From a virus, in IMG/VR virus record IMGVR_UViG_3300014720_004613, positions 1 to 22,987 of that record: a stretch of DNA of 22,987 nt. One strand, 5' to 3'. Below the pieces are notes generated by a model that saw only the letters and a program-made list of their open reading frames with translations, was not told the DNA's origin and did no database searches. The translations under genes and the position numbers were made by a program. This document shows positions 765 to 18,750 of the stretch, piece after piece (the stretch's first letter is position 1; each line of letters begins with the position of its first letter).

Positions 765-959
765 ATGTCAGAGATTCAGGAACAACCTCAGGTCGATGTT
801 GAGAAGGTCGGCTGCAGGATTGTGGACGTCCACATTTGTTTGCAACGGGCTTTTGAGGAGTTCACAGAAAGCGGCGATAATACGCTCGAAGGTTTGGCGA
901 AGAAGATACAGGAGCAGCTAAGTTCGATGCCTGTTTTCTTGATCGGTGATCAAGCATGA
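765..959 (+). CDS. Hypothetical 64-aa acidic protein
   Basis: I choose the ATG at 765 over an upstream in-frame TTG at 720, because the sequence before 765 is purine-rich (GGGAG then AAGAAG) and could act as a ribosome-binding region while the TTG has none. The product is acidic with a helical centre (CLQRAFEEF...LEGLAKKIQEQL). No family recognised. The stop is followed within 7 nt by a clear intrinsic terminator, which supports a real transcription unit ending here. Confidence 0.6.
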   Translation: MSEIQEQPQVDVEKVGCRIVDVHICLQRAFEEFTESGDNTLEGLAKKIQEQLSSMPVFLIGDQA

Positions 960-965
960 TGAATT

Positions 966-993
966 AAGGCCACTTCGGTGGCCTTTCTTCTTT
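966..993 (+). terminator. Intrinsic terminator
   Basis: AAGGCCAC (966-973), loop TTCG, GTGGCCTT (978-985), then a pyrimidine/T-rich run. This is a classic 8-bp stem with a UUCG tetraloop, directly after the stop of the 765-959 gene. Confidence 0.9.
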
Positions 994-1001
994 CTGCGTG
1001 T

Positions 1002-1009
1002 TATACTTA
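1002..1009 (+). promoter_or_regulatory. Class A -10 octamer TATACTTA
   Basis: TATACTTA ends exactly 5 nt before the ATG at 1015, just downstream of a terminator. No Shine-Dalgarno is present, so a leaderless transcript is likely. Confidence 0.65.
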
Positions 1010-1014
1010 AATTT

Positions 1015-1365
1015 ATGCGGTCGATCTTCGTTCTAATGCTCTTTATGGTCGCGTGTAGCTCATCTCCTCCACTCGATGAGTTCGAGTCGAGCAGCCAATC
1101 TTACAGCGGGCCTCCTCCAAAACCTATTGTCTGTGAGTCTCCTCGAGTTTTATGTGGGACTTTATGTGTGGACATCTCACGAGACAACATGAACTGCGGT
1201 GACTGTGATAGCGTCTGCGAGGTCTCACAAGGAGAGTTCTGTCTAGGCTATTACTGCAGAAATGTGAGGGATTACGGTTTCTATTTCGGGCCTGTCGGTC
1301 CCGTGGAATACGACGCGAGGAGAGACCTACCTCGACCACCAAGAATCGGGGAGGAAGATCGATGA
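1015..1365 (+). CDS. Cysteine-rich lipoprotein
   Basis: 116 aa. The start at 1015 is set by the -10 octamer and gives a clean lipoprotein signal peptide (MRSIFVLMLFMVAC, with a lipobox-like FMVAC ending at Cys14). The mature part has a Ser/Pro-rich linker, then a Cys module with C-G-x-x-C ... NCGxC ... C ... C spacing, like the module in the larger lipoprotein at 10270-10980. Such modules are common in Myxococcota surface proteins and are presumably disulfide-bonded outside the cytoplasm. The tail is Pro/Arg-rich. Its stop overlaps the start of the next gene (ATGA). A role at the host surface is inference. Confidence 0.8.
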   Translation: MRSIFVLMLFMVACSSSPPLDEFESSSQSYSGPPPKPIVCESPRVLCGTLCVDISRDNMNCGDCDSVCEVSQGEFCLGYYCRNVRDYGFYFGPVGPVEYDARRDLPRPPRIGEEDR

Positions 1366-2287: not shown

Positions 2288-2926
2288 ATGCGTCTTTTTC
2301 TCGCTCGACTGATAAGATCTTTCAGATCTCTTCTTGTGGCGGGAAGGTCTCCCGGGGACAACATAAACAATGGCGTGAATGTCAACATTAACGTCTCTTT
2401 CAACCAAGAGACGCCACGTAAATTCGAGAAAAAAGACATAGTTGGTACTATAAAAATATTTGCAGGAGATGTCTATCCTGATGGTTGGCTGCCCTGCGAT
2501 GGCAGATGTCTCAAGATAAGAGAGTACGCCGACCTCTACACCATCATAGGAACGACCTACGGAGGCAACGGACGAACCACGTTTGTGTTACCAGATCTCA
2601 GAGGCAGAGTTCCCGTCGGGTCTGGGGAGGGATTCAATTTGAGCGTGAGACAGATCGGTCAGATATTCGGTGACGAGAGGGTGTCTGTCAAGATAGACAA
2701 CATGCCAATAAAAACCACCGACAACGTAGGTCAGCCTACATCCGGAAGTTTTGAACTTGTCAGAGACCCTGACGATCAAGAATACAACAGACTTGTTGTC
2801 TCGTCTGCGAAAGGGAGAAAAATGAAGTCTATGGGAGAAGGTAGACCCATAGAACTAGTTCAACCATCTTTGTGCTTAAATTATATCATCTGCTGCAGAG
2901 GAATTTACCCGGACAATGTCGACTAA
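2288..2926 (+). CDS. Phage tail collar domain protein (microcystin-dependent protein-like)
   Basis: 212 aa. Residues about 50-125 carry the collar signature: GTIKIFAGDVYPDGWLPCDG, then IGTTYGGNGRTTFVLPDLRGR and VPVGSG. The end (QPSLCLNYIICCRG) is the usual C-terminus of this family, found in short tail fibres and in proteins labelled microcystin-dependent. The N-terminal 45 residues are basic then Asn/Val-rich (NNGVNVNINVSF) and lack a clear signal peptide. A paralogue without this N-terminus lies at 8816. Probably a virion fibre or adhesin component; no other tail genes are nearby, so placement in the virion is inference. Confidence 0.9.
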   Translation: MRLFLARLIRSFRSLLVAGRSPGDNINNGVNVNINVSFNQETPRKFEKKDIVGTIKIFAGDVYPDGWLPCDGRCLKIREYADLYTIIGTTYGGNGRTTFVLPDLRGRVPVGSGEGFNLSVRQIGQIFGDERVSVKIDNMPIKTTDNVGQPTSGSFELVRDPDDQEYNRLVVSSAKGRKMKSMGEGRPIELVQPSLCLNYIICCRGIYPDNVD

Positions 2927-4798: not shown

Positions 4799-5641
4799 AT
4801 GAAGACACTCGCAATACTGCTCGCATCACTCCTCCTCTCGTCCCACGTCCCCGCAGGGGAATATGAGACACTCACAGGTCCAAAGGACACAGTTCGTGTG
4901 GGCACCTGGAATATCAAGCGCCTCGGTAACGGCAAGAAGAACTACGACCTCGTGGCTAAGTTGATCGAGTCGAAGTTCGATGTAGTCGCAGTCCAGGAGG
5001 TGATGACAGAGGAGGGCGTGAAAGAGATCGTCAAGAGGCTACCAGGTTGGTCCTACTCAGTGTCGGGACAGGTGGGAAAGAAGGGTTACTACGAGAGGTA
5101 CGGGATTCTCGTAAGGAACATCACGGGTCGGATCAAGAGCATGCACGTCGTACCAGATCCCACTGATGTGTGGACACGTGAGCCTGCTGTGGCATGTGTG
5201 GAGGCATCTAACGTGGACTTCTGCCTCGTCACAACCCACATCGTGTTCGGAAACAACGTAGGTCAAAGGGACAAAGAGATAGCATCGCTCGCAGGTCTCA
5301 TCGACAACCTCAGAAGGATGGACTCAGAGAAGGATTATATCCTTGTAGGTGACTTCAATCGCGCAGGAAACACACCAGGATTCGCATCCTTTCCGAAGTT
5401 TGGCTTTAAACTCATCGATGATGGAATTACCAACACTTCATTGGGTCCTACAGGATATGTTTCACCTTACGATCACGTCCTCCTCGATTCAAAGTACACA
5501 CGTGAATTGAAAGGAATCGCAGAGAGGATTGATATGGTAAAGGAGCTGTGTGGAGGTGACTTCAAGGTGTGCGCCGCGGCGGTTTCTGACCACGCACCGA
5601 TGAGATTCACTCTCGACAACAGGGGCGTCGACGACGACTGA
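4799..5641 (+). CDS. Secreted endonuclease/exonuclease/phosphatase (DNase I-like) family protein
   Basis: 280 aa with a Sec signal peptide (MKTLAILLASLLLSSHVPAG). The EEP-fold motifs occur in order: GTWNIKRLG with N38, VAVQEV with E67, TTHI with H147, VGDFNR with D185 and N187, YDHVL with D225-H226, and SDHAP with D264-H265. All expected metal and catalytic residues are present, so it should be an active Mg-dependent phosphodiesterase or phosphatase. Substrate cannot be told; extracellular or periplasmic nuclease is most likely. It could degrade external or host periplasmic DNA or recover phosphate. It converges on the barrel gene at 5642, with stops directly adjacent. Confidence 0.9.
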   Translation: MKTLAILLASLLLSSHVPAGEYETLTGPKDTVRVGTWNIKRLGNGKKNYDLVAKLIESKFDVVAVQEVMTEEGVKEIVKRLPGWSYSVSGQVGKKGYYERYGILVRNITGRIKSMHVVPDPTDVWTREPAVACVEASNVDFCLVTTHIVFGNNVGQRDKEIASLAGLIDNLRRMDSEKDYILVGDFNRAGNTPGFASFPKFGFKLIDDGITNTSLGPTGYVSPYDHVLLDSKYTRELKGIAERIDMVKELCGGDFKVCAAAVSDHAPMRFTLDNRGVDDD

Positions 5642-7782: not shown

Positions 7783-7802
7783 ATTCTATATTACTTGTAA
7801 CA

Positions 7803-7810
7803 TATAATTA
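7803..7810 (+). promoter_or_regulatory. Class A -10 octamer TATAATTA
   Basis: TATAATTA ends exactly 5 nt before the ATG at 7816. This is the closest match to a consensus TATAAT among class A sites; no clear -35. Confidence 0.6.
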
Positions 7811-7815
7811 AGGGA

Positions 7816-8541
7816 ATGAACGAAAGGCTACTTCGTCAATACATCGCAAACGTCCTTACTGAGGCGCAGGCGGACGCATCGGATCCGTACGGGGAGTACC
7901 TCTTCGCTCCACAACGCAAGGACCTGAAGACGAAGAAGCGGGAGCCTAACACACCGGAAGAAGACGCGTTGTTGAAGGCCCTTGAGGACCACTACAACAA
8001 CGAGGAGTACACCCTCGGCGAATTCGCACCAGAGATCCTCGACCTGATATCTCAGGGCAAGTACTCGAAGCTGCTGTCTCCTCCCCCCGGTCCCTACTAC
8101 CGCCTCCTCGCCGAGTTGCCTGCTCCTGCCTTCGCCTCCTTCCTGGGAGTGCGACCCAAGTCCCTCGTTGTCGGAGAGCCGACTGGCGGAGGACCAGGCA
8201 CCATGACGCCGGGCGGAAGATACTCGGGATCCACCGGCATCCACTCCTGGACGACGAAGCTGGATCCCAAGTGGGTCAACAAGGACATCCTCACCCGTAA
8301 GTACATGAAGGCAGGAGAGGTCCTCGCAGTCGTCGTGGCTGACGAGAGTGGAGGAGACTTCATCGTCAATCCCAAGGGGATGGGCAACGTGTCGGGGATG
8401 CCGTCCTACGTGGCCACCCAGAATGAGGTCATCTCATACGGACCGGTGTCCTTCGACTCCTGCGTCTACTACGTTGCCACGGGAGCCAAGGGGGAGATGA
8501 CGTCCCACGAGGCCCTGAAGCAGTTGATGGGCATGCTGTGA
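7816..8541 (+). CDS. Candidate ADP-ribosyltransferase with N-terminal virion-targeting-like tag
   Basis: 241 aa. Residues 1-16 (MNERLLRQYIANVLTE) form an amphipathic helix ending in L14-T15-E16, the (L/I)-x-E type of site cut by T4-like prohead proteases. A Pro/Lys-rich linker follows. The C-terminal 150 residues fit the R-S-E ADP-ribosyltransferase pattern: R96 in YYRLLAE, S144-W-T-T in GIHSWTTKLD, and Q202-N-E204 in TQNEVISYGP, followed by a beta-strand (CVYYV). In T4, Alt is packaged with a similar removable tag and modifies host RNA polymerase after injection. Assignment is from motifs only; the arginine motif is weaker than the others, and target is unknown. Confidence 0.65.
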   Translation: MNERLLRQYIANVLTEAQADASDPYGEYLFAPQRKDLKTKKREPNTPEEDALLKALEDHYNNEEYTLGEFAPEILDLISQGKYSKLLSPPPGPYYRLLAELPAPAFASFLGVRPKSLVVGEPTGGGPGTMTPGGRYSGSTGIHSWTTKLDPKWVNKDILTRKYMKAGEVLAVVVADESGGDFIVNPKGMGNVSGMPSYVATQNEVISYGPVSFDSCVYYVATGAKGEMTSHEALKQLMGML

Positions 8542-8815: not shown

Positions 8816-9253
8816 ATGGAAGACTTCATAGCAACGATCAAGTTATTCGCAGGCAACTTCGCACCGGACGGATGGTTCTTCTGCTGGGGGCAGTCGCTCC
8901 CGATACAGCAGTACGCCGCGTTGTACTCCCTCCTGGGAACCACTTATGGGGGAGACGGTCATACAAACTTCAACCTGCCCGATCTCCGCGGCAGGGTCCC
9001 TGTTGGGGTGGGATCGTGTCCGACACTCGGAACCAACCATCAGTTGGGAGAGAGGTGGGGAGCAGAAACTGCGACGCTGACTCCGGCGCAGTTGCCGTTG
9101 AAGACGTCGACGGGTACGTGCATCGCCACCGTCCCACCGGCCACCGGATTCTCAACAGTGACGGGGACCGCCAATCCGGTGCCTCTCAGTCAACCTTCCC
9201 TAGGACTCAACTACATCATCTGTTGGAACGGCGCCTATCCGTCGAGGCCGTGA
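8816..9253 (+). CDS. Phage tail collar domain protein (microcystin-dependent protein-like)
   Basis: 145 aa, almost entirely the collar domain: TIKLFAGNFAPDGWFFCWGQSLPI, LLGTTYGGDGHTNFNLPDLRGRVPVGVG, then LTPAQLPLKTSTG and the terminal QPSLGLNYIICWNGAYP. It is a shorter paralogue of the protein at 2288 and lacks that protein's basic N-terminal extension. Family members are trimeric tips of short tail fibres or secreted homologues. The upstream region is purine-rich (GAAAGAACGGAAAC) without a good Shine-Dalgarno or class A octamer, so it may be read through from 8550. A clear terminator follows. Confidence 0.92.
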   Translation: MEDFIATIKLFAGNFAPDGWFFCWGQSLPIQQYAALYSLLGTTYGGDGHTNFNLPDLRGRVPVGVGSCPTLGTNHQLGERWGAETATLTPAQLPLKTSTGTCIATVPPATGFSTVTGTANPVPLSQPSLGLNYIICWNGAYPSRP

Positions 9254-9276: not shown

Positions 9277-9306
9277 GCAGGAGAAATCCTGCTTCTTTCT
9301 TCATTT
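9277..9306 (+). terminator. Intrinsic terminator
   Basis: GCAGGA (9277-9282), GAAA loop, TCCTGC (9287-9292), followed by TTCTTTCTTCATTTT. It ends the plus-strand unit and overlaps the stop of the convergent phosphatase gene. Confidence 0.85.
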
Positions 9307-10185
9307 TACAGGACACGTCTTCGTCATGGAGACAACGTCTCTCACGATCGGCTCTCTCACGAACCTGAATCCGACGTCCACTCGACCGGAAGACACCTCC
9401 ATCATCACGTAACCTGACTTGGAGGCGAAGAAGCGATTCCGTTCATCGACGGGGAAGCCGATGCCGTCGAGGTCGTCTGTGGTGTTGCCGACCGTCCAGT
9501 GCATCACACCGCGGTGCTCGAACCTCTCGGCCCAGTGAGCGTGTCCCGAGAAGACGCCGTCGATTCCGTAGTCTCTCCAGGGCCAGTCCATGTCGGGGAC
9601 GGGCTCGCAACCGATGCAGAAGTCGCTCTGGTCCACCTTGGTGGAGACGGCGGGGTGGTGGAAGAAGACGAACCTGAAGCAGTCGTCGGGTGAAGCAGCG
9701 ACCCTCTCTCGAAACCACTCAGCCTGTCGGGACGACCACGAGATTCCGTCAGGTTCACGGTCGTCGGAGTCGAGGAAGAAGAAGTGGACGTTGCCGAGGG
9801 TGACGTCGTAGTAGCGGGGGACGCCGAAGAACGACTCGAAGGGTTGAGACTCACGAGGTCCGTCCCAGTCGTGGTTGCCGATCGCGGGGAGGAAGTCGCG
9901 GGAGGCGAGCCAGCGTCCGAAGAACTCGCCCACGTGGGTGTCGTAGGTGGAGGTGTCGCGGGGGAAGGGATACACGTTGTCTCCCACCGTGGCGACGTGT
10001 GCCACACCGTTGAGCGCCATGTCGCGGGCCGCCCACCGCTCCACGCCGCTGCGGTTGCCAAAGTCACCGATGATGCCGACCCGGACGGCGGGGCCGGAGG
10101 AGAGGGAAGGGACTCGAGATGTCGGGATGGGGAGACAACATCCGGAGGCGACGAGGGTGGAGAGGAAGATCGCAAATAATCTCAT
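9301..10185 (-). CDS. Purple-acid-phosphatase-type metallophosphoesterase, lipoprotein
   Basis: 294 aa from the ATG at 10185, chosen over an ATG at 10206 because it gives a clean lipoprotein signal (MRLFAIFLSTLVASGC, lipobox LVASGC, Cys16). Metal-binding motifs occur in order: GDFG (D41), GDNVY (D69, N70, Y72), GNHDWD (N104, H105, D106), FFHHP (H176-H177) and SGHAHWAE (H215, H217). The GDxG start and Tyr after GDN are the purple acid phosphatase/ACP5 pattern, which uses a dinuclear metal centre to release phosphate from esters outside the cytoplasm. On the minus strand CTAGTT lies 6 nt before the ATG. Such an enzyme is unusual in a phage. Confidence 0.88.
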   Translation of the reverse strand: MRLFAIFLSTLVASGCCLPIPTSRVPSLSSGPAVRVGIIGDFGNRSGVERWAARDMALNGVAHVATVGDNVYPFPRDTSTYDTHVGEFFGRWLASRDFLPAIGNHDWDGPRESQPFESFFGVPRYYDVTLGNVHFFFLDSDDREPDGISWSSRQAEWFRERVAASPDDCFRFVFFHHPAVSTKVDQSDFCIGCEPVPDMDWPWRDYGIDGVFSGHAHWAERFEHRGVMHWTVGNTTDDLDGIGFPVDERNRFFASKSGYVMMEVSSGRVDVGFRFVREPIVRDVVSMTKTCPVK

Positions 10186-10269
10186 GCCTCCAACTAGGGG
10201 AGTCACTGCGACGTTAGAGGCCCATCACACACATGTAACGAAGAGTTACCGCCACCGTCACAGAGAGAT

Positions 10270-10980
10270 TCAGCGTGACTTGCAGAGTCCGTCGACGCAT
10301 GCCGTTCCCTTGAGGCAAGTGGCCGTGGAGGGAGAGCAGTAGACGTTCGCAGTGCGACAGGGAGCGACCGCGTATGAAACCTGCGCGGAGGCGACCGCAG
10401 AGCACGGGTTGTAGTAGTTAATCCCATCGGCACCGCAGACGATCTGTTTCGGGAGGTCCCTGCATGAGTCTACCACCTTGAGGGGAGAAGGCTCGGGCTT
10501 GTTCTCGCATCCTACCTTGTCGACACAGACGTCGAGGGTCGCGGGATTGGAGTCGTCGCAGCTCCTCGTCCTCGTGGTGCAGAGACCTGCAGGAAGCTGA
10601 CAGAAGGCGACGACGCAGGTGGAGGGAGTCGGGCACTGGGAGTCGACGGAGCAGGGAGATCGAAGGACCTCGGCGACCGAACCTGGGCCGGCAGGAGGGG
10701 CGACGGCCGCATCGGAAGGGGCAGGCGCAGGCACGGGAGGGGACGAGGCGTCTCTCCGAGGCGCGCACCGACCTGCGACGCACTGGTGGGTGTCGGGACA
10801 GGCGACCCCGCAGGCTCCACAATTGGCGTTGTCGATCCCGAGGGCGGAGCACCATCCACCGCAGTCGGTGAGTCCGGATGGACACGCACCTTCGGGACGG
10901 GGCCGTCGAGGACCCGGGTCGCATGCGGAGGAGAGGACGAGGAGAGGGAGGAGGACGAGGAGAGGGATCGAGCATTTCAT
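10270..10980 (-). CDS. Cysteine-rich lipoprotein with Kazal-like domain
   Basis: 236 aa from the ATG at 10980. The signal MKCSIPLLVLLPLLVLSSAC has a lipobox-like LSSAC ending at Cys20. Then comes a Cys module (CGGWCSALGIDNANCGACG, VACPDTHQCVAGRC) of the type frequent in Myxococcota, an Ala/Pro linker, a second Cys-rich part, and near the C-terminus CRDLPKQIVCGADGINYYN followed by PCSAVASAQVSYAVAPC. The last part matches the Kazal pattern VCGxDGxxYxNxC ... A ... Y ... C of serine-protease inhibitors. An anchored protease inhibitor in a phage is odd; inhibiting host or competitor proteases is inference. TACCAT lies exactly 6 nt before the ATG. Confidence 0.8.
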   Translation of the reverse strand: MKCSIPLLVLLPLLVLSSACDPGPRRPRPEGACPSGLTDCGGWCSALGIDNANCGACGVACPDTHQCVAGRCAPRRDASSPPVPAPAPSDAAVAPPAGPGSVAEVLRSPCSVDSQCPTPSTCVVAFCQLPAGLCTTRTRSCDDSNPATLDVCVDKVGCENKPEPSPLKVVDSCRDLPKQIVCGADGINYYNPCSAVASAQVSYAVAPCRTANVYCSPSTATCLKGTACVDGLCKSR

Positions 10981-10986
10981 GCCACC

Positions 10987-10992
10987 ATGGTA
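10987..10992 (-). promoter_or_regulatory. Minus-strand -10 hexamer TACCAT
   Basis: Reads TACCAT on the minus strand, 6 nt before the ATG at 10980. It decides this start over an upstream in-frame ATG at 11025. Confidence 0.45.
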
Positions 10993-12721: not shown

Positions 12722-13438
12722 TCATCGCTTCTTCACCACCTTCTTCTTGGTTGCAGTCTTCTTTGCCTTGGGAGCCGCCGCTGCCACCTTGGTGGCCTTC
12801 GTCGACGCCGCCTTGACGACCTTCTTGGTCGGCTTCTTCGCCACCTTCTTGGTGGGCTTCGGAGGAGCCGCCACCGTGACGACGGACACCTTCTTCTTGG
12901 TCGCCCGCTTCTTCGCCTTCTCCGCCCGCTTCACCTTCATGGCCGCCTTCTCGGCCGCGATGACCTCCTTGGGGCGGTTCTTGGCACCCGGCGGCCGACC
13001 ACGACCACGCTTCTCGCCCGTCGGGGTGGAGGGAGGCGGAGCGTCGACCACTTCCTTCTTGGGCCGGCCACGCTTCCGCTTGGTGGAGATGTCCACCTTT
13101 CCGACGGCGAGCTTGAAGACGGTACCGAAGCGGATGCCTTCCTTCCAGTTCATGATGGCGTTCTGGTCCAGCTGCTCGTCGAAGAGGTGCATGCGACCGG
13201 TGAACTCGTCGTGGCGAACGACGAGGTACGTCTTCGTGTCGAGGTAGGGCTTGCCTGCCAGGAACGTCGAGTAGCGCTCGATGACGAGCTTGTCGCCCTC
13301 CTTGAACTGAGCGACACCGCCGACGATGGCGTCGGGCAGCTTCGTGATGTCCGGCTTCGCCACCGCCTTGCGGGTGACGGCGTCGAGGGCTTCCTGGGTG
13401 ACGATGTCAGACGGGGACTCGAAGTCGATGTTGCTCAT
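12722..13438 (-). CDS. AT-hook / histone H1-like DNA-binding protein
   Basis: 238 aa from the ATG at 13438; an upstream in-frame ATG at 13447 overlaps the -10, so it is unlikely. Residues 45-115 look like a folded beta-rich domain (FKEGDKLVIERYSTF ... GTVFKLAV). Two AT-hooks follow: KRKRGRPKK at 120-128 and RGRGRPPG at 144-151. The last 80 residues are Lys/Ala-rich like eukaryotic H1 tails. AT-hooks bind the minor groove of AT tracts. The combination recalls HMGA-like myxobacterial CarD, but the N-terminal domain is not clearly CarD. Probably organises phage DNA or acts with the RadA-like protein encoded just upstream. Confidence 0.85.
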   Translation of the reverse strand: MSNIDFESPSDIVTQEALDAVTRKAVAKPDITKLPDAIVGGVAQFKEGDKLVIERYSTFLAGKPYLDTKTYLVVRHDEFTGRMHLFDEQLDQNAIMNWKEGIRFGTVFKLAVGKVDISTKRKRGRPKKEVVDAPPPSTPTGEKRGRGRPPGAKNRPKEVIAAEKAAMKVKRAEKAKKRATKKKVSVVTVAAPPKPTKKVAKKPTKKVVKAASTKATKVAAAAPKAKKTATKKKVVKKR

Positions 13439-13445
13439 GGTGATC

Positions 13446-13474
13446 ATCCTATCAAGAGGGGAGGGAACTTTGCA
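13446..13474 (-). promoter_or_regulatory. Class B promoter (minus strand)
   Basis: TGCAAA, 17 nt, TAGGAT, then 7 nt to the ATG at 13438. It lies between the RadA-like stop and the AT-hook start. Confidence 0.8.
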
Positions 13475-13480
13475 CTGGGC

Positions 13481-14233
13481 TCAGACGATCTCACCCTTTT
13501 CGTAGAGACCATCGCGGCGGATGCCGAGGATGTAGGCACGGCCGGAGCAGCCGAAGCGGTTCTTGGTGACCTCGAAGATGCGCTCCCCGTAGGTCTCCGA
13601 CTTCTTGGACTGGTCGATGTAGATGGAGCCGCGGACGTCGATGGCGTGGAGGATGCCGTTCTTGCCCTGGAATTCGCCGTCCTTGTTGACCTGGCCGATG
13701 AAGATGACGATGCCGTAGGTGGCCTTCGCCCAGTCGGTCAGCATCTCCGCGCAGCGCATCGGGGTGACGGAGTTGGTGGCCTCGCCCCACTTGCCGTCGT
13801 TGAGAGTCTGCAGGGAGTCCTGGAGGACGAAGACCTGCTTGCCGGGGTTGGCCTTGCGGAGCATGTCGGCGTGGGCCAACAGGTCCGTGACGTGGGTGTC
13901 CTGGCCGACGACGAAGCCCTCACGGAGGCCGAGACGCTCGACGACCATCTTCACCTGGTGGAGGGATTCCTCGCCGGTGTTGTAGAGGCAGATGTGCCCC
14001 GCCTTGGTGATGGCGTTGGCGAGCTGCAGGAGCATCGTCGTCTTGCCGGCACCGGGGGTACCGGTCAGCATCATGACGGACGACGGCACGAGGCCGTCAC
14101 CACCGAGGGCGTCGTCGAACCACGTGATGCCGACCTTCTTGCGGTCGCGCAGCTGCTTCGGCACCTCGATGTCGTTGATGTTGGTGCCGCGCTTGAGGCC
14201 CTTGATGCCGACGTTGAGAGTCATCTTCGCCAT
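13481..14233 (-). CDS. RadA/Sms-like RecA-family ATPase (core only)
   Basis: 250 aa. Walker A GTPGAGKTT at 58-66, NTGEES at 85-90 (RadA has SGEES), Walker B VFVLQDSLQ at 134-142 (RadA has IDSIQT), GQVNKDGE at 180-187 and the RadA hallmark KNRFG at 224-228. The N-terminal zinc finger and C-terminal Lon-like domain of bacterial RadA (about 450 aa) are absent. RadA is a hexameric motor that promotes branch migration; phage cores of this size act in recombination-dependent replication or as single-strand annealing helpers. It has a 68-nt leader with AAAGGA 9 nt before the ATG, unlike most neighbours. Confidence 0.9.
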   Translation of the reverse strand: MAKMTLNVGIKGLKRGTNINDIEVPKQLRDRKKVGITWFDDALGGDGLVPSSVMMLTGTPGAGKTTMLLQLANAITKAGHICLYNTGEESLHQVKMVVERLGLREGFVVGQDTHVTDLLAHADMLRKANPGKQVFVLQDSLQTLNDGKWGEATNSVTPMRCAEMLTDWAKATYGIVIFIGQVNKDGEFQGKNGILHAIDVRGSIYIDQSKKSETYGERIFEVTKNRFGCSGRAYILGIRRDGLYEKGEIV

Positions 14234-15454: not shown

Positions 15455-15528
15455 GTCCCCGTAGCTCAGCTGGATAGAGCATCGGCCTTCTAAGCCGTGG
15501 GTCGCACGTTCGAATCGTGCCGGGGACG
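15455..15528 (+). tRNA. tRNA-Arg (anticodon TCT)
   Basis: Acceptor GTCCCCG/CGGGGAC, D-stem GCTC/GAGC, anticodon loop CTTCTAA (TCT, reads AGA), T-arm GCACG-TTCGAAT-CGTGC, discriminator G. The bottom anticodon-stem pair is T-T. CCA is not encoded. AGA is frequent in the AT-richer left part of this window. Confidence 0.92.
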
Positions 15529-15620
15529 CAAAGGACGTGAGGCTCGCCGCGGGGTAAATCGTACGCACACCCCAACTCGCCAAATCGTCGCCGTTCGACT
15601 GAGGCGCTCATCGAACGGAA

Positions 15621-15687
15621 GTGCATCGAAGCTCTTGGAGAGCCCCCAGCGTATTGGGAGGCGCGGGTTCGAATCCCGCCGATGCAC
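15621..15687 (+). tRNA. tRNA-like sequence, anticodon arm not canonical
   Basis: GTGCATCG/CGATGCAC gives an 8-bp acceptor-like stem (extendable with one mismatch to 12), with a D-like stem GCTC/GAGC over a 5-nt loop and a perfect T-arm GCGGG-TTCGAAT-CCCGC. Only 20 nt separate D-stem and T-stem, and the hairpin there (CCCA/TGGG around GCGTAT) has no T33-type loop, so I cannot assign an anticodon. At 67 nt it is short for a tRNA. It may be a degenerate tRNA, an atypical one, or a tRNA-like decoy. Confidence 0.45.
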
Positions 15688-15732
15688 CTCCTCCTCCCAT
15701 CCCGGGCGGAGAGAACCAAGAAGAGAAACCGC

Positions 15733-16002
15733 ATGACCGACACTAACTTCCACTACTACACCGCCTACGTCGTCCGCTCCTGGAATGGCAAGTTCCTCAA
15801 CCAGCGCACCTACACGGGCCGCACCCCGAACATGTGGGGCAAGATCGGGGAGTCCTTCGTCTTCCGCTCCGCCAGGCGTGCCCAGTGCGCAGCCTCCAGC
15901 ATCAACAAGCGCCCGAAGGACCGCAGCAACGCTGATCCCCAGAACGCCACGGTGACGACCATCCTGCTGCCGCGTCGTAACCCACGCCGCCGCGCAGCCT
16001 GA
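15733..16002 (+). CDS. Small basic hypothetical protein in tRNA cluster
   Basis: 89 aa from the ATG at 15733, 45 nt after the tRNA-like element; the frame is open upstream through that element, which is rejected. The protein is basic (FRSARRAQCAASSINKRPKDRSN ... RRNPRRRAA) with an aromatic N-terminus (NFHYYTAYVVRSWNGKFLNQRTYTG). It looks like a small nucleic-acid-interacting protein, but no family is recognised. An AGAAGAG purine tract precedes the start. Probably co-transcribed with the tRNAs. Confidence 0.65.
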   Translation: MTDTNFHYYTAYVVRSWNGKFLNQRTYTGRTPNMWGKIGESFVFRSARRAQCAASSINKRPKDRSNADPQNATVTTILLPRRNPRRRAA

Positions 16003-16029
16003 CACCACCTCCCCTTCGGGGGAGCAGTC

Positions 16030-16115
16030 GCTCAGGTGTTGGAATCGGTAGACAACGGGGACTTAAAATCCCTTGCCCATAAAGCGTGCGGGTTCGAGTC
16101 CCGCCCTGAGCACCA
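16030..16115 (+). tRNA. tRNA-Leu (anticodon TAA)
   Basis: Acceptor GCTCAGG/CCTGAGC, D-loop with GG, anticodon loop CTTAAAA (TAA), long class II variable arm, T-arm GCGGG-TTCGAGT-CCCGC, A73 and an encoded CCA (16113-16115). It reads UUA, rare in GC-rich genomes. Confidence 0.95.
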
Positions 16116-16144
16116 CACCACATCAGACCAACGAAAGACACTGC

Positions 16145-16405
16145 ATGGGTTACTACGTCAACACCACAGGCAAGCTACTCATCGGCGCAGCCGTCGCGTC
16201 CCTCGGCGCGGCCCTCTTCAAGAAGCTGCAGGAGTCCGACTTCGACCCCGGAGACCTCGGCATCACCGGGGACCTGCACGAACGCCTGCAGATGGATGCC
16301 TCCGCCGACTTCCACGACTCCTTCGACCACAAGCTGCACCGAGCCGGAGTGGAGGACCCCGACGCCCGCAAGGCGCTGTGGAAGTACTACCGCTCCCGTC
16401 GTTGA
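16145..16405 (+). CDS. Small protein with N-terminal hydrophobic segment
   Basis: 86 aa from the ATG at 16145, between tRNA-Leu and tRNA-Arg. MGYYVNTTGKLLIGAAVASLGAALFKKL suggests a membrane-associated helix, followed by an acidic, His-rich helical part (DLHERLQMDASADFHDSFDHKLHRAG) and a basic end (WKYYRSRR). No family recognised. Upstream ribosome-binding signal is weak. Position between tRNA genes implies processing of a mixed mRNA-tRNA transcript. Confidence 0.65.
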   Translation: MGYYVNTTGKLLIGAAVASLGAALFKKLQESDFDPGDLGITGDLHERLQMDASADFHDSFDHKLHRAGVEDPDARKALWKYYRSRR

Positions 16406-16417
16406 GGCGGTGACCAC

Positions 16418-16491
<74 letters not shown>

Positions 16492-16534
16492 CAACAAGGG
16501 ACAGTCACGTCCCCATTTGAAAGAGAGAAACAGC

Positions 16535-18204: not shown

Positions 18205-18750
18205 ATGAAGATCAGAATTTCACAGTTGCGCAGAATCATCGCAGAAGAAGTCCGCAGGGTCGTCGCCGACGGCGACGACTCCGCCGAGCTGGAGGCCTCC
18301 GCCGGCGACTGGGTGGAGGACAACTACGATGACATCCTCGCGAGACTGAAGTCCGACCCGAAGCTCACCGCTGCCATCCTCGCCGCCGCCGGCATCAACG
18401 AGTCCTACGTGGGCGGCCTCGCCCGAGGCGTCGCTGACTACTACAAAGGCGGCATCTCCGCCACGAAGAACGTCGCGGCCGTTACTGGCGGAGCCGGAGG
18501 CGTCCTCGCCGCGGGGATCATGGCGATGGTGAACGATCCGAGCCTCATCCCGTGGACGGAGCTCCGCTCCCTGCAGTTGGACGACAAGATCATCATGGAC
18601 GGATCCGCCTTCAAGGGAATGGTGGTCGGCGCCCTACTCGGGCACCTCGTCGACGTCGCGAAGCATGCGAAGGAGTTCGCCGACCACTCGGCGGCGAAGG
18701 CCGCTTCCACCGAGCGAGCCCGCGCGAAAATGGCGGCGCGCCGCCGCTGA
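18205..18750 (+). CDS. Hypothetical protein with virion-tag-like N-terminus and membrane-active centre
   Basis: 181 aa; GGAGAG 6 nt before the ATG at 18205. Residues 1-16 (MKIRISQLRRIIAEEV) share the tag with the 17777 product; I12-A13-E14 gives an (I/L)-x-E site. An acidic helical segment follows (SAELEASAGDWVEDNYDDILARL), then a Gly/Ala-rich hydrophobic centre (NVAAVTGGAGGVLAAGIMAMV, GMVVGALLGHLV) and an Ala/Arg-rich basic tail. It could be an internal virion protein released on maturation, possibly membrane-interacting after injection; this is inference. A terminator follows. Confidence 0.75.
   Translation: MKIRISQLRRIIAEEVRRVVADGDDSAELEASAGDWVEDNYDDILARLKSDPKLTAAILAAAGINESYVGGLARGVADYYKGGISATKNVAAVTGGAGGVLAAGIMAMVNDPSLIPWTELRSLQLDDKIIMDGSAFKGMVVGALLGHLVDVAKHAKEFADHSAAKAASTERARAKMAARRR

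What the first reader, a model, noticed from the sequence alone, without database searches (positions are those of the whole stretch)
7816..8541. Possible injected ADP-ribosyltransferase (T4 Alt analogue)
The protein pairs an N-terminal amphipathic tag ending in L-T-E with a C-terminal domain showing R96, S144-W-T-T and Q202-x-E204, the R-S-E pattern of arginine-type ADP-ribosyltransferases. T4 Alt is packaged by an N-terminal capsid-targeting peptide cut at (I/L)-x-E and modifies host proteins on entry. The combination suggests an independent Alt-like effector in an unrelated phage.
Basis: partly seen in the sequence, partly recalled or inferred. Interest (0 to 1): 0.8.

Follow-up and report, generated by a model that had tools for sequence, protein, structure and literature searches.

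The report
Phage enzyme tagged for virion packaging
A large environmental phage encodes a small enzyme predicted to attach ADP-ribose to host molecules, carrying an N-terminal address tag like those that load proteins into phage heads; relatives and head genes found elsewhere support reading it as a new counterpart of phage T4's injected Alt enzyme, but packaging and activity are not yet shown.

Summary
Alone the motif is weak (about 4% of shuffles). I found 11 relatives in other viral contigs, several from jumbo phages, none among 50,697 phage records. Over all 12 members R96, W145 and E204 are invariant; most have textbook VYRG...SWS...ExE. AlphaFold models (pLDDT 83 and 88) align almost only to ADP-ribosyltransferases (best: Vis, Z 4.9 and 7.4). 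The tag holds up too: all 10 members with a complete N-terminus carry a hydrophobic leader ending [L/I/F]xE; in a 260-kb relative the same leader (MKLYxILFE) starts 18 ORFs, mostly unrelated, and none of 1,107 internal methionines; leader-bearing proteins sit beside a gp21-type protease in two jumbo phages, one (298 kb) a close relative of the window. Corrections: this member has QxE, so arginine specificity is not supported; it lacks T4 Alt's family signature (PF03496); relatives have T4-type head genes, so 'unrelated phage' is too strong. Packaging, cleavage, NAD transfer and target are untested. Verdict: a new ART family that probably works like Alt but is not Alt.

The parts
7816..8541 (+). 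gene for the 241-aa ART-like protein (P0001)
   Evidence: 11 relatives
7816..7863 (+). N-terminal leader, residues 1-16 (MNERLLRQYIANVLTE), putative capsid-targeting peptide, possible cleavage after E16
   Evidence: predicted helix 3-14 at low confidence (pLDDT 57-59), outside the folded domain; leader type found in all complete members; conserved domain begins about residue 23
8101..8103 (+). R96 codon, catalytic Arg candidate in the first ART strand (E94-102)
   Evidence: 12/12 conserved, strand assignment
8245..8256 (+). S144-W145-T146-T147, STS-like motif in strand E142-146
   Evidence: S 10/12, W 12/12, strand
8404..8427 (+). ARTT-loop-like segment S197-E204 with Q202-N203-E204
   Evidence: E204 12/12; position 202 E in 9, Q in 3; loop definition PMC7827354
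17777..18112 (+). second leader-bearing protein (MKLTSTQLRAIIAEEVEAAL...), unknown function, possible co-packaged cargo
   Evidence: no meaningful Pfam or PHROG match
18205..18750 (+). third leader-bearing protein (MKIRISQLRRIIAEEVRRVV...), unknown function, possible co-packaged cargo
   Evidence: strict leader pattern; no significant family match
13481..14233 (-). RecA/KaiC-like ATPase used to place the window among jumbo phages (76-82% identity to four contigs, one of 298 kb)

Best explanation
The gene encodes a virion-delivered mono-ADP-ribosyltransferase. Inferred pathway: the first ~16 residues dock the protein onto the prohead core; the phage's gp21-type protease cuts after E16 (V-L-T-E|A) during head maturation; the mature ~225-aa ART domain stays inside the head, is ejected with the DNA at the next infection and transfers ADP-ribose from NAD to a host molecule before phage genes are expressed. 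Shown: conserved R / SW / E residues across a 12-member family, an ART-like predicted fold with those residues in the expected strands, a leader of the right form, the same leader style on unrelated proteins of the same phages, and gp21-type protease plus gp23-type capsid protein in a close relative of the window. Inferred: packaging, cleavage site, injection, catalysis, and the target (Q202 suggests an Asn-type or other non-arginine acceptor).
For: Family: R96, W145, E204 12/12, S144 10/12; canonical VYRG...SWST...EKE in most; aromatic residue at the third position of the ARTT loop in 7 of 12 (read against PMC7827354). Fold: window model pLDDT 83, pTM 0.80, the 31 listed entries with Z>=2 are ART-superfamily or the ART-like CC0527 (Vis 4.9 over residues 12-238); relative P0002 pLDDT 88, Vis Z 7.4 over 143 residues, the 50 listed rows again ARTs, Tpt1/KptA or CC0527. 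Leader: 10/10 complete members; G001 strict leader at 18 of 333 ORFs versus 0 of 1,107 internal Met; MK[IL]..QL[KR].[IL][IV]-type leader at 9 of 381 ORFs in G008 and 0 of 1,246 internal Met. Link to head: leader-bearing small protein next to the protease in G001 and G008, homologous at E 1.5e-15. Protease: PF03420 E 2.7e-29 and 9.9e-26, phrog_207 'head maturation protease'; capsid Gp23. G008 shares the window's recombinase at 76% and has an ART homologue. T4 precedent: the IPIII leader of 10 residues suffices for packaging, Alt loses a short propeptide (PMC9026906); T4 IPII, IPIII, Alt and gp24 are picked up by the same leader criterion.
Against: No virion or biochemical data. Structural Z-scores are below 8 and Foldseek E-values are poor (0.34 and 0.035). 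Two paralogues have Gly in place of the STS serine, so some members may be inactive. The window contig is a 23-kb fragment without head genes; the protease is known only from relatives. The ART homologue of the closest large relative (G008) has its leader in another frame just upstream, so it is broken or misassembled there. T4-like late promoters (TATAAATA) are not enriched upstream of tagged genes in G001. The leader criterion misses T4 IPI, gp22 and gp67.
Confidence: 0.7

Rival explanations
1. An ART made and used inside the infected cell, like T4 ModA/ModB; the leader is only an amphipathic N-terminal helix without packaging function.
For: ModA and ModB are intracellular ARTs of T4 made from early genes (PMC10468400); no T4-type late promoter signal at tagged genes; homologues in L013/L014 lie among replication-type genes (RecA/UvsX-like, SSB-like, dUTPase-like, named by eye).
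Against: Leader present in every complete member although its sequence changes from phage to phage in step with leaders on unrelated proteins of the same genome; leader-bearing proteins beside the prohead protease.
Confidence: 0.17
2. An ART-fold protein without transferase activity, packaged as a binding or inhibitory internal protein (as T4 IPI is).
For: Position 202 is Q and two paralogues lack the STS serine; packaged internal proteins can be inhibitors (IPI, PMC9026906).
Against: R, W and E invariant in 12/12 and S kept in the window protein; Q at the first ExE position is compatible with activity in C3 enzymes (PMC7827354).
Confidence: 0.08
3. Packaged ART that modifies nucleic acid or a small molecule rather than a protein.
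For: Structural neighbours include the guanine-specific ART 5zj4 and DarT and Tpt1/KptA and Arr.
Against: Closest neighbour is Vis, listed also in complex with agmatine, an arginine analogue; the match list does not predict substrate.
Confidence: 0.04

Closest known systems
T4 Alt (gpAlt, ADPrib_exo_Tox PF03496, Alt/VIP2 clade)
   Same: ART with an R-S-E type active site and a short N-terminal leader (MELITELFDE) with [IL]xE-type sites; Alt is head-packaged and injected, which is predicted here
   Different: 682 aa versus 241 aa; PF03496 hits Alt at 5.8e-36 and none of our members; profile comparison not significant; QxE in the window protein
T4 internal proteins IPII/IPIII and their capsid-targeting sequence (MKTYQEFIAE)
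   Same: short N-terminal leader shared by otherwise unrelated proteins, hydrophobic, ending in [LI]xE; the G001 leader MKLYxILFE is very similar
   Different: cargo here is an enzyme domain; many more leader-bearing proteins per genome; function of the leader not tested here
Head-packaged phage ARTs of MuF-fusion or polyvalent-protein type (PMC5512222, PMC9503650)
   Same: ARTs predicted to be loaded into phage heads and injected
   Different: those were recognised by fusion to or neighbourhood of head genes; this one is stand-alone with a short leader
Vis toxin of Vibrio splendidus (4xzj) as structural neighbour
   Same: best structural match of both models (Z 4.9 and 7.4)
   Different: about 10-15% identity; a secreted toxin, not a phage protein

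Membership tests
ADP-ribosyltransferase superfamily, R-S-E class | ART fold | tested here: met
   listed structural matches are ARTs or ART-like; Z moderate (4.9 window, 7.4 relative), so the assignment rests also on motif placement
ADP-ribosyltransferase superfamily, R-S-E class | Arg in the first strand, STS-like motif in the second, E/Q-x-E at the ARTT loop | tested here: met
   R96 in E94-102, S144 in E142-146, E204 at the start of E204-208; conserved 12/12, 10/12, 12/12
ADP-ribosyltransferase superfamily, R-S-E class | NAD-dependent transferase activity | not testable with these tools
   needs protein and assay
Arginine-specific R-S-E ARTs | E at the first position of ExE | tested here: not met
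   window protein has Q202; 9 of 12 members have E
T4 Alt / ADPrib_exo_Tox (PF03496) | match to PF03496 | tested here: not met
   no match for the members scanned, with T4 Alt as positive control at 5.8e-36
T4 Alt / ADPrib_exo_Tox (PF03496) | presence in virion and injection | not testable with these tools
   needs virion proteomics
T4-type capsid-targeting sequence | short N-terminal peptide (10-20 aa) ending in a prohead-protease type [LI]xE site | tested here: met
   residues 1-16 ending LTE; 10/10 complete members have a leader of this form
T4-type capsid-targeting sequence | same leader on other, unrelated proteins of the phage | tested here: inconclusive
   met in relatives: G001 MKLYxILFE set and G008 set; in the window itself two proteins carry a related but not identical leader
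T4-type capsid-targeting sequence | phage encodes a gp21-type prohead protease | tested here: inconclusive
   met in relatives G001 and G008; the window is a fragment without head genes
T4-type capsid-targeting sequence | leader is sufficient for packaging and is cleaved | not testable with these tools
   needs reporter fusion and mass spectrometry
MuF-fused or polyvalent ARTs | ART domain fused to MuF, portal or a multidomain injected protein | tested here: not met
   stand-alone 241-aa protein; no other Pfam domain

The most novel reading that the evidence does not exclude
Jumbo phages with T4-type heads use a genome-specific N-terminal address peptide to load dozens of different effectors into the head, so the injected repertoire of an uncultured phage can be read from sequence; this family is one cargo, with several ART paralogues per phage and a Q-x-E branch that modifies a non-arginine acceptor.
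Probability: 0.5. Interest if true: 0.78.

Novelty: new variant of a known kind. Interest (0 to 1): 0.62.

Why it matters
Head-packaged ARTs are thought to be common in contractile-tailed phages (PMC9503650), but they were recognised by fusion or gene neighbourhood; T4 Alt is the well-studied case with a short cleaved propeptide. This family pairs a different ART lineage with a leader that can be recognised genome-wide, and the leader also marks other candidate effectors (for example a NUDIX and a zeta-toxin-like protein in the 260-kb relative). If packaging is confirmed, it gives a sequence-based way to list injected proteins of uncultured phages and a set of first-minute host-takeover enzymes to test.

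Tried and rejected
Pfam, PHROGs, NCBIfam, PADLOC and PDB sequence searches of the protein and its family gave no meaningful match; ModA and ModB also give no Pfam match, so this is not evidence against an ART. tblastn against 50,697 phage records: none for four members. Foldseek against PDB and BFVD gave only weak hits. Late-promoter enrichment upstream of tagged genes: negative. Profile comparison with T4 Alt and ModB: not significant, although the YR segment falls in register. Text search for the leader strings: no paper, a weak test because sequences in figures are not held. Rejected: chance motif (12-member conservation); membership in Alt/PF03496; secretion signal peptide (charged residues spread through the leader and no long hydrophobic core; judged by eye). 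L011 is filed under a Rickettsiaceae MAG but carries the same DNA-polymerase-like and leader-bearing genes as viral contigs L013/L014, so I treat it as phage.

Full report
Observation. The spaced motif alone is weak evidence: 3.7% of shuffles and 22 of 372 comparable ORFs satisfy a loose form, 0.12% of shuffles a tight form.

Family. Sequence libraries know nothing like it and tblastn with four members finds nothing in 50,697 phage records. Scans of IMG/VR and GTDB contigs gave 11 relatives: four paralogues, two of them in tandem, in a 260-kb contig (G001), two in a 19-kb contig (G002), one each in L011, L013 and L014, and one each in a 74-kb (G006) and a 298-kb (G008) contig. In the 12-member alignment R96, W145 and E204 are invariant, S144 is kept in 10, and position 202 is E in 9 and Q in 3 including the window. 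Most members show the textbook VYRG...SWS/T...ExE. The ARTT loop of R-S-E enzymes is X-X-aromatic-X-X-E/Q-X-E (PMC7827354); the aromatic residue is in place in 7 of 12 (read by eye), and in the window it is shifted by one (Y198).

Fold. AlphaFold2 with the family alignment gave pLDDT 83.2 and pTM 0.80 for the window protein and 87.6 and 0.84 for relative P0002. R96, S144 and E204 lie in or at the start of strands E94-102, E142-146 and E204-208. Re-alignment of Foldseek's candidates (985 chains) gave Z>=2 almost only for ART-superfamily structures (Vis 4.9, pertussis S1, an ART toxin of a toxin/immunity pair, TreX, a guanine-specific ART, cholera and heat-labile toxins, DarT, Tpt1, Arr, PARP4); the remaining entry, CC0527, I regard as ART-like. 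For P0002, Vis reaches Z 7.4 over 143 residues and the 50 listed rows are of the same kind. Z below 8 would not suffice alone; with invariant catalytic residues in the right strands I take the fold as about 90% certain.

Leader. Residues 1-16 are modelled as a low-confidence helix outside the domain and conservation of the domain begins near residue 23. All 10 members with a complete N-terminus have a hydrophobic leader ending [L/I/F]xE at residues 9-16. The leader changes between phages while the domain is conserved: MKLDKFLYE and MKLTSLLYE in G001, MSNLTKLIQSILTE in G002, MSTANLKILLEYLFE in L013 (whose contig also has an unrelated protein starting MSENLRKLLEYLVQE). In G001 the strict form MKLYxILFE is at the start of 18 of 333 ORFs and at none of 1,107 internal methionines, on proteins that are mostly unrelated, including a NUDIX protein; a zeta-toxin-like protein there has a related leader. 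A second style (MKITxxQLKxLIREE), also on two window proteins in near form (17777, 18205), is at 9 of 381 ORFs in G008 and none of 1,246 internal methionines, and in 50 IMG/VR stretches with an exact pattern match. T4's own IPII, IPIII, Alt and gp24 meet the loose criterion; IPI, gp21, gp22 and gp67 do not.

Link to the head. G001 and G008 encode a gp21-type prohead protease (PF03420; phrog_207) and a gp23-type capsid protein. In both, a small protein with a leader of the second style lies next to the protease, and the two small proteins are homologous (E 1.5e-15). G008 shares the window's RecA/KaiC-like protein at 76% identity, so the window most likely comes from a jumbo phage of the same group. 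T4 precedent: the first 10 residues of IPIII are enough for packaging and are removed by gp21, and Alt loses a short N-terminal propeptide and is ejected into the host (PMC9026906).

Mechanism and membership. The best reading is a packaged, protease-trimmed, injected ART. It works like Alt but is not a member of Alt's family: PF03496 detects Alt (5.8e-36) and none of the members, and profile comparison is not significant. The arginine-type label does not fit the window protein (Q202); C3-type QxE enzymes modify asparagine (PMC7827354). Head-packaged ARTs as a strategy are already proposed for many myoviruses through MuF fusions, polyvalent proteins or gene neighbourhood (PMC5512222, PMC9503650); the stand-alone, leader-tagged form in this family is a new variant.

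Limits. The window has no head genes; nothing shows the protein in virions or any activity; leader criteria were set after seeing part of the data; head genes of G002 and the smaller contigs are unknown; the G008 homologue has its leader in another frame; a T4-type late promoter signal was looked for and not found.

Noticed in passing
G001 (IMGVR_UViG_3300042453_005404) about 133905-144282: A run of about a dozen genes, mostly unrelated, starting with MKLYxILFE-type leaders; includes NUDIX and zeta-toxin-like proteins: candidate packaged-effector island.
   Followed up: partly
G001:190466-190990 and G008:255867-256283: Homologous small proteins with a leader-like N-terminus beside the prohead protease: candidate prohead core component.
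   Followed up: partly
L039 (G002, 19 kb): Several further ART-like ORFs with YHGT motifs in the same contig, one with weak ART-PolyVal (E 5.5e-4, below cut-off) and GNAT matches, some with leaders of type SKRFKELAGLLTE.
   Followed up: partly
L101:1456-2100 (G008 ART): The leader MKIRLSELRSLIREEIVH lies just upstream of the ART ORF in another frame; decay or assembly error.
   Followed up: partly
window 7800-8000: GC content steps from about 0.45 to about 0.60 at the start of the ART gene and stays high to the end of the contig.
   Followed up: no
window 946-1365 and 10270-10989: Two Cys-rich lipoprotein-like ORFs with weak Stig1-like matches below cut-off, plus signal-peptide-like proteins including an endonuclease/phosphatase-family protein (4799-5641) and a calcineurin-like phosphoesterase (9301-10206); unusual for a phage.
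   Followed up: partly
window 2288-2926 and 8816-9253: Two tail-collar-like proteins (phrog_9116, E 3e-23 and 1.6e-22) in one 23-kb stretch.
   Followed up: no
window 12722-13447 (-): Lys/Ala-rich protein with an AT-hook match and a histone-like tail.
   Followed up: no
window 15455-16492: tRNA-Arg(tct), tRNA-Leu(taa), tRNA-Arg(cct) and one tRNA of unclear identity.
   Followed up: no
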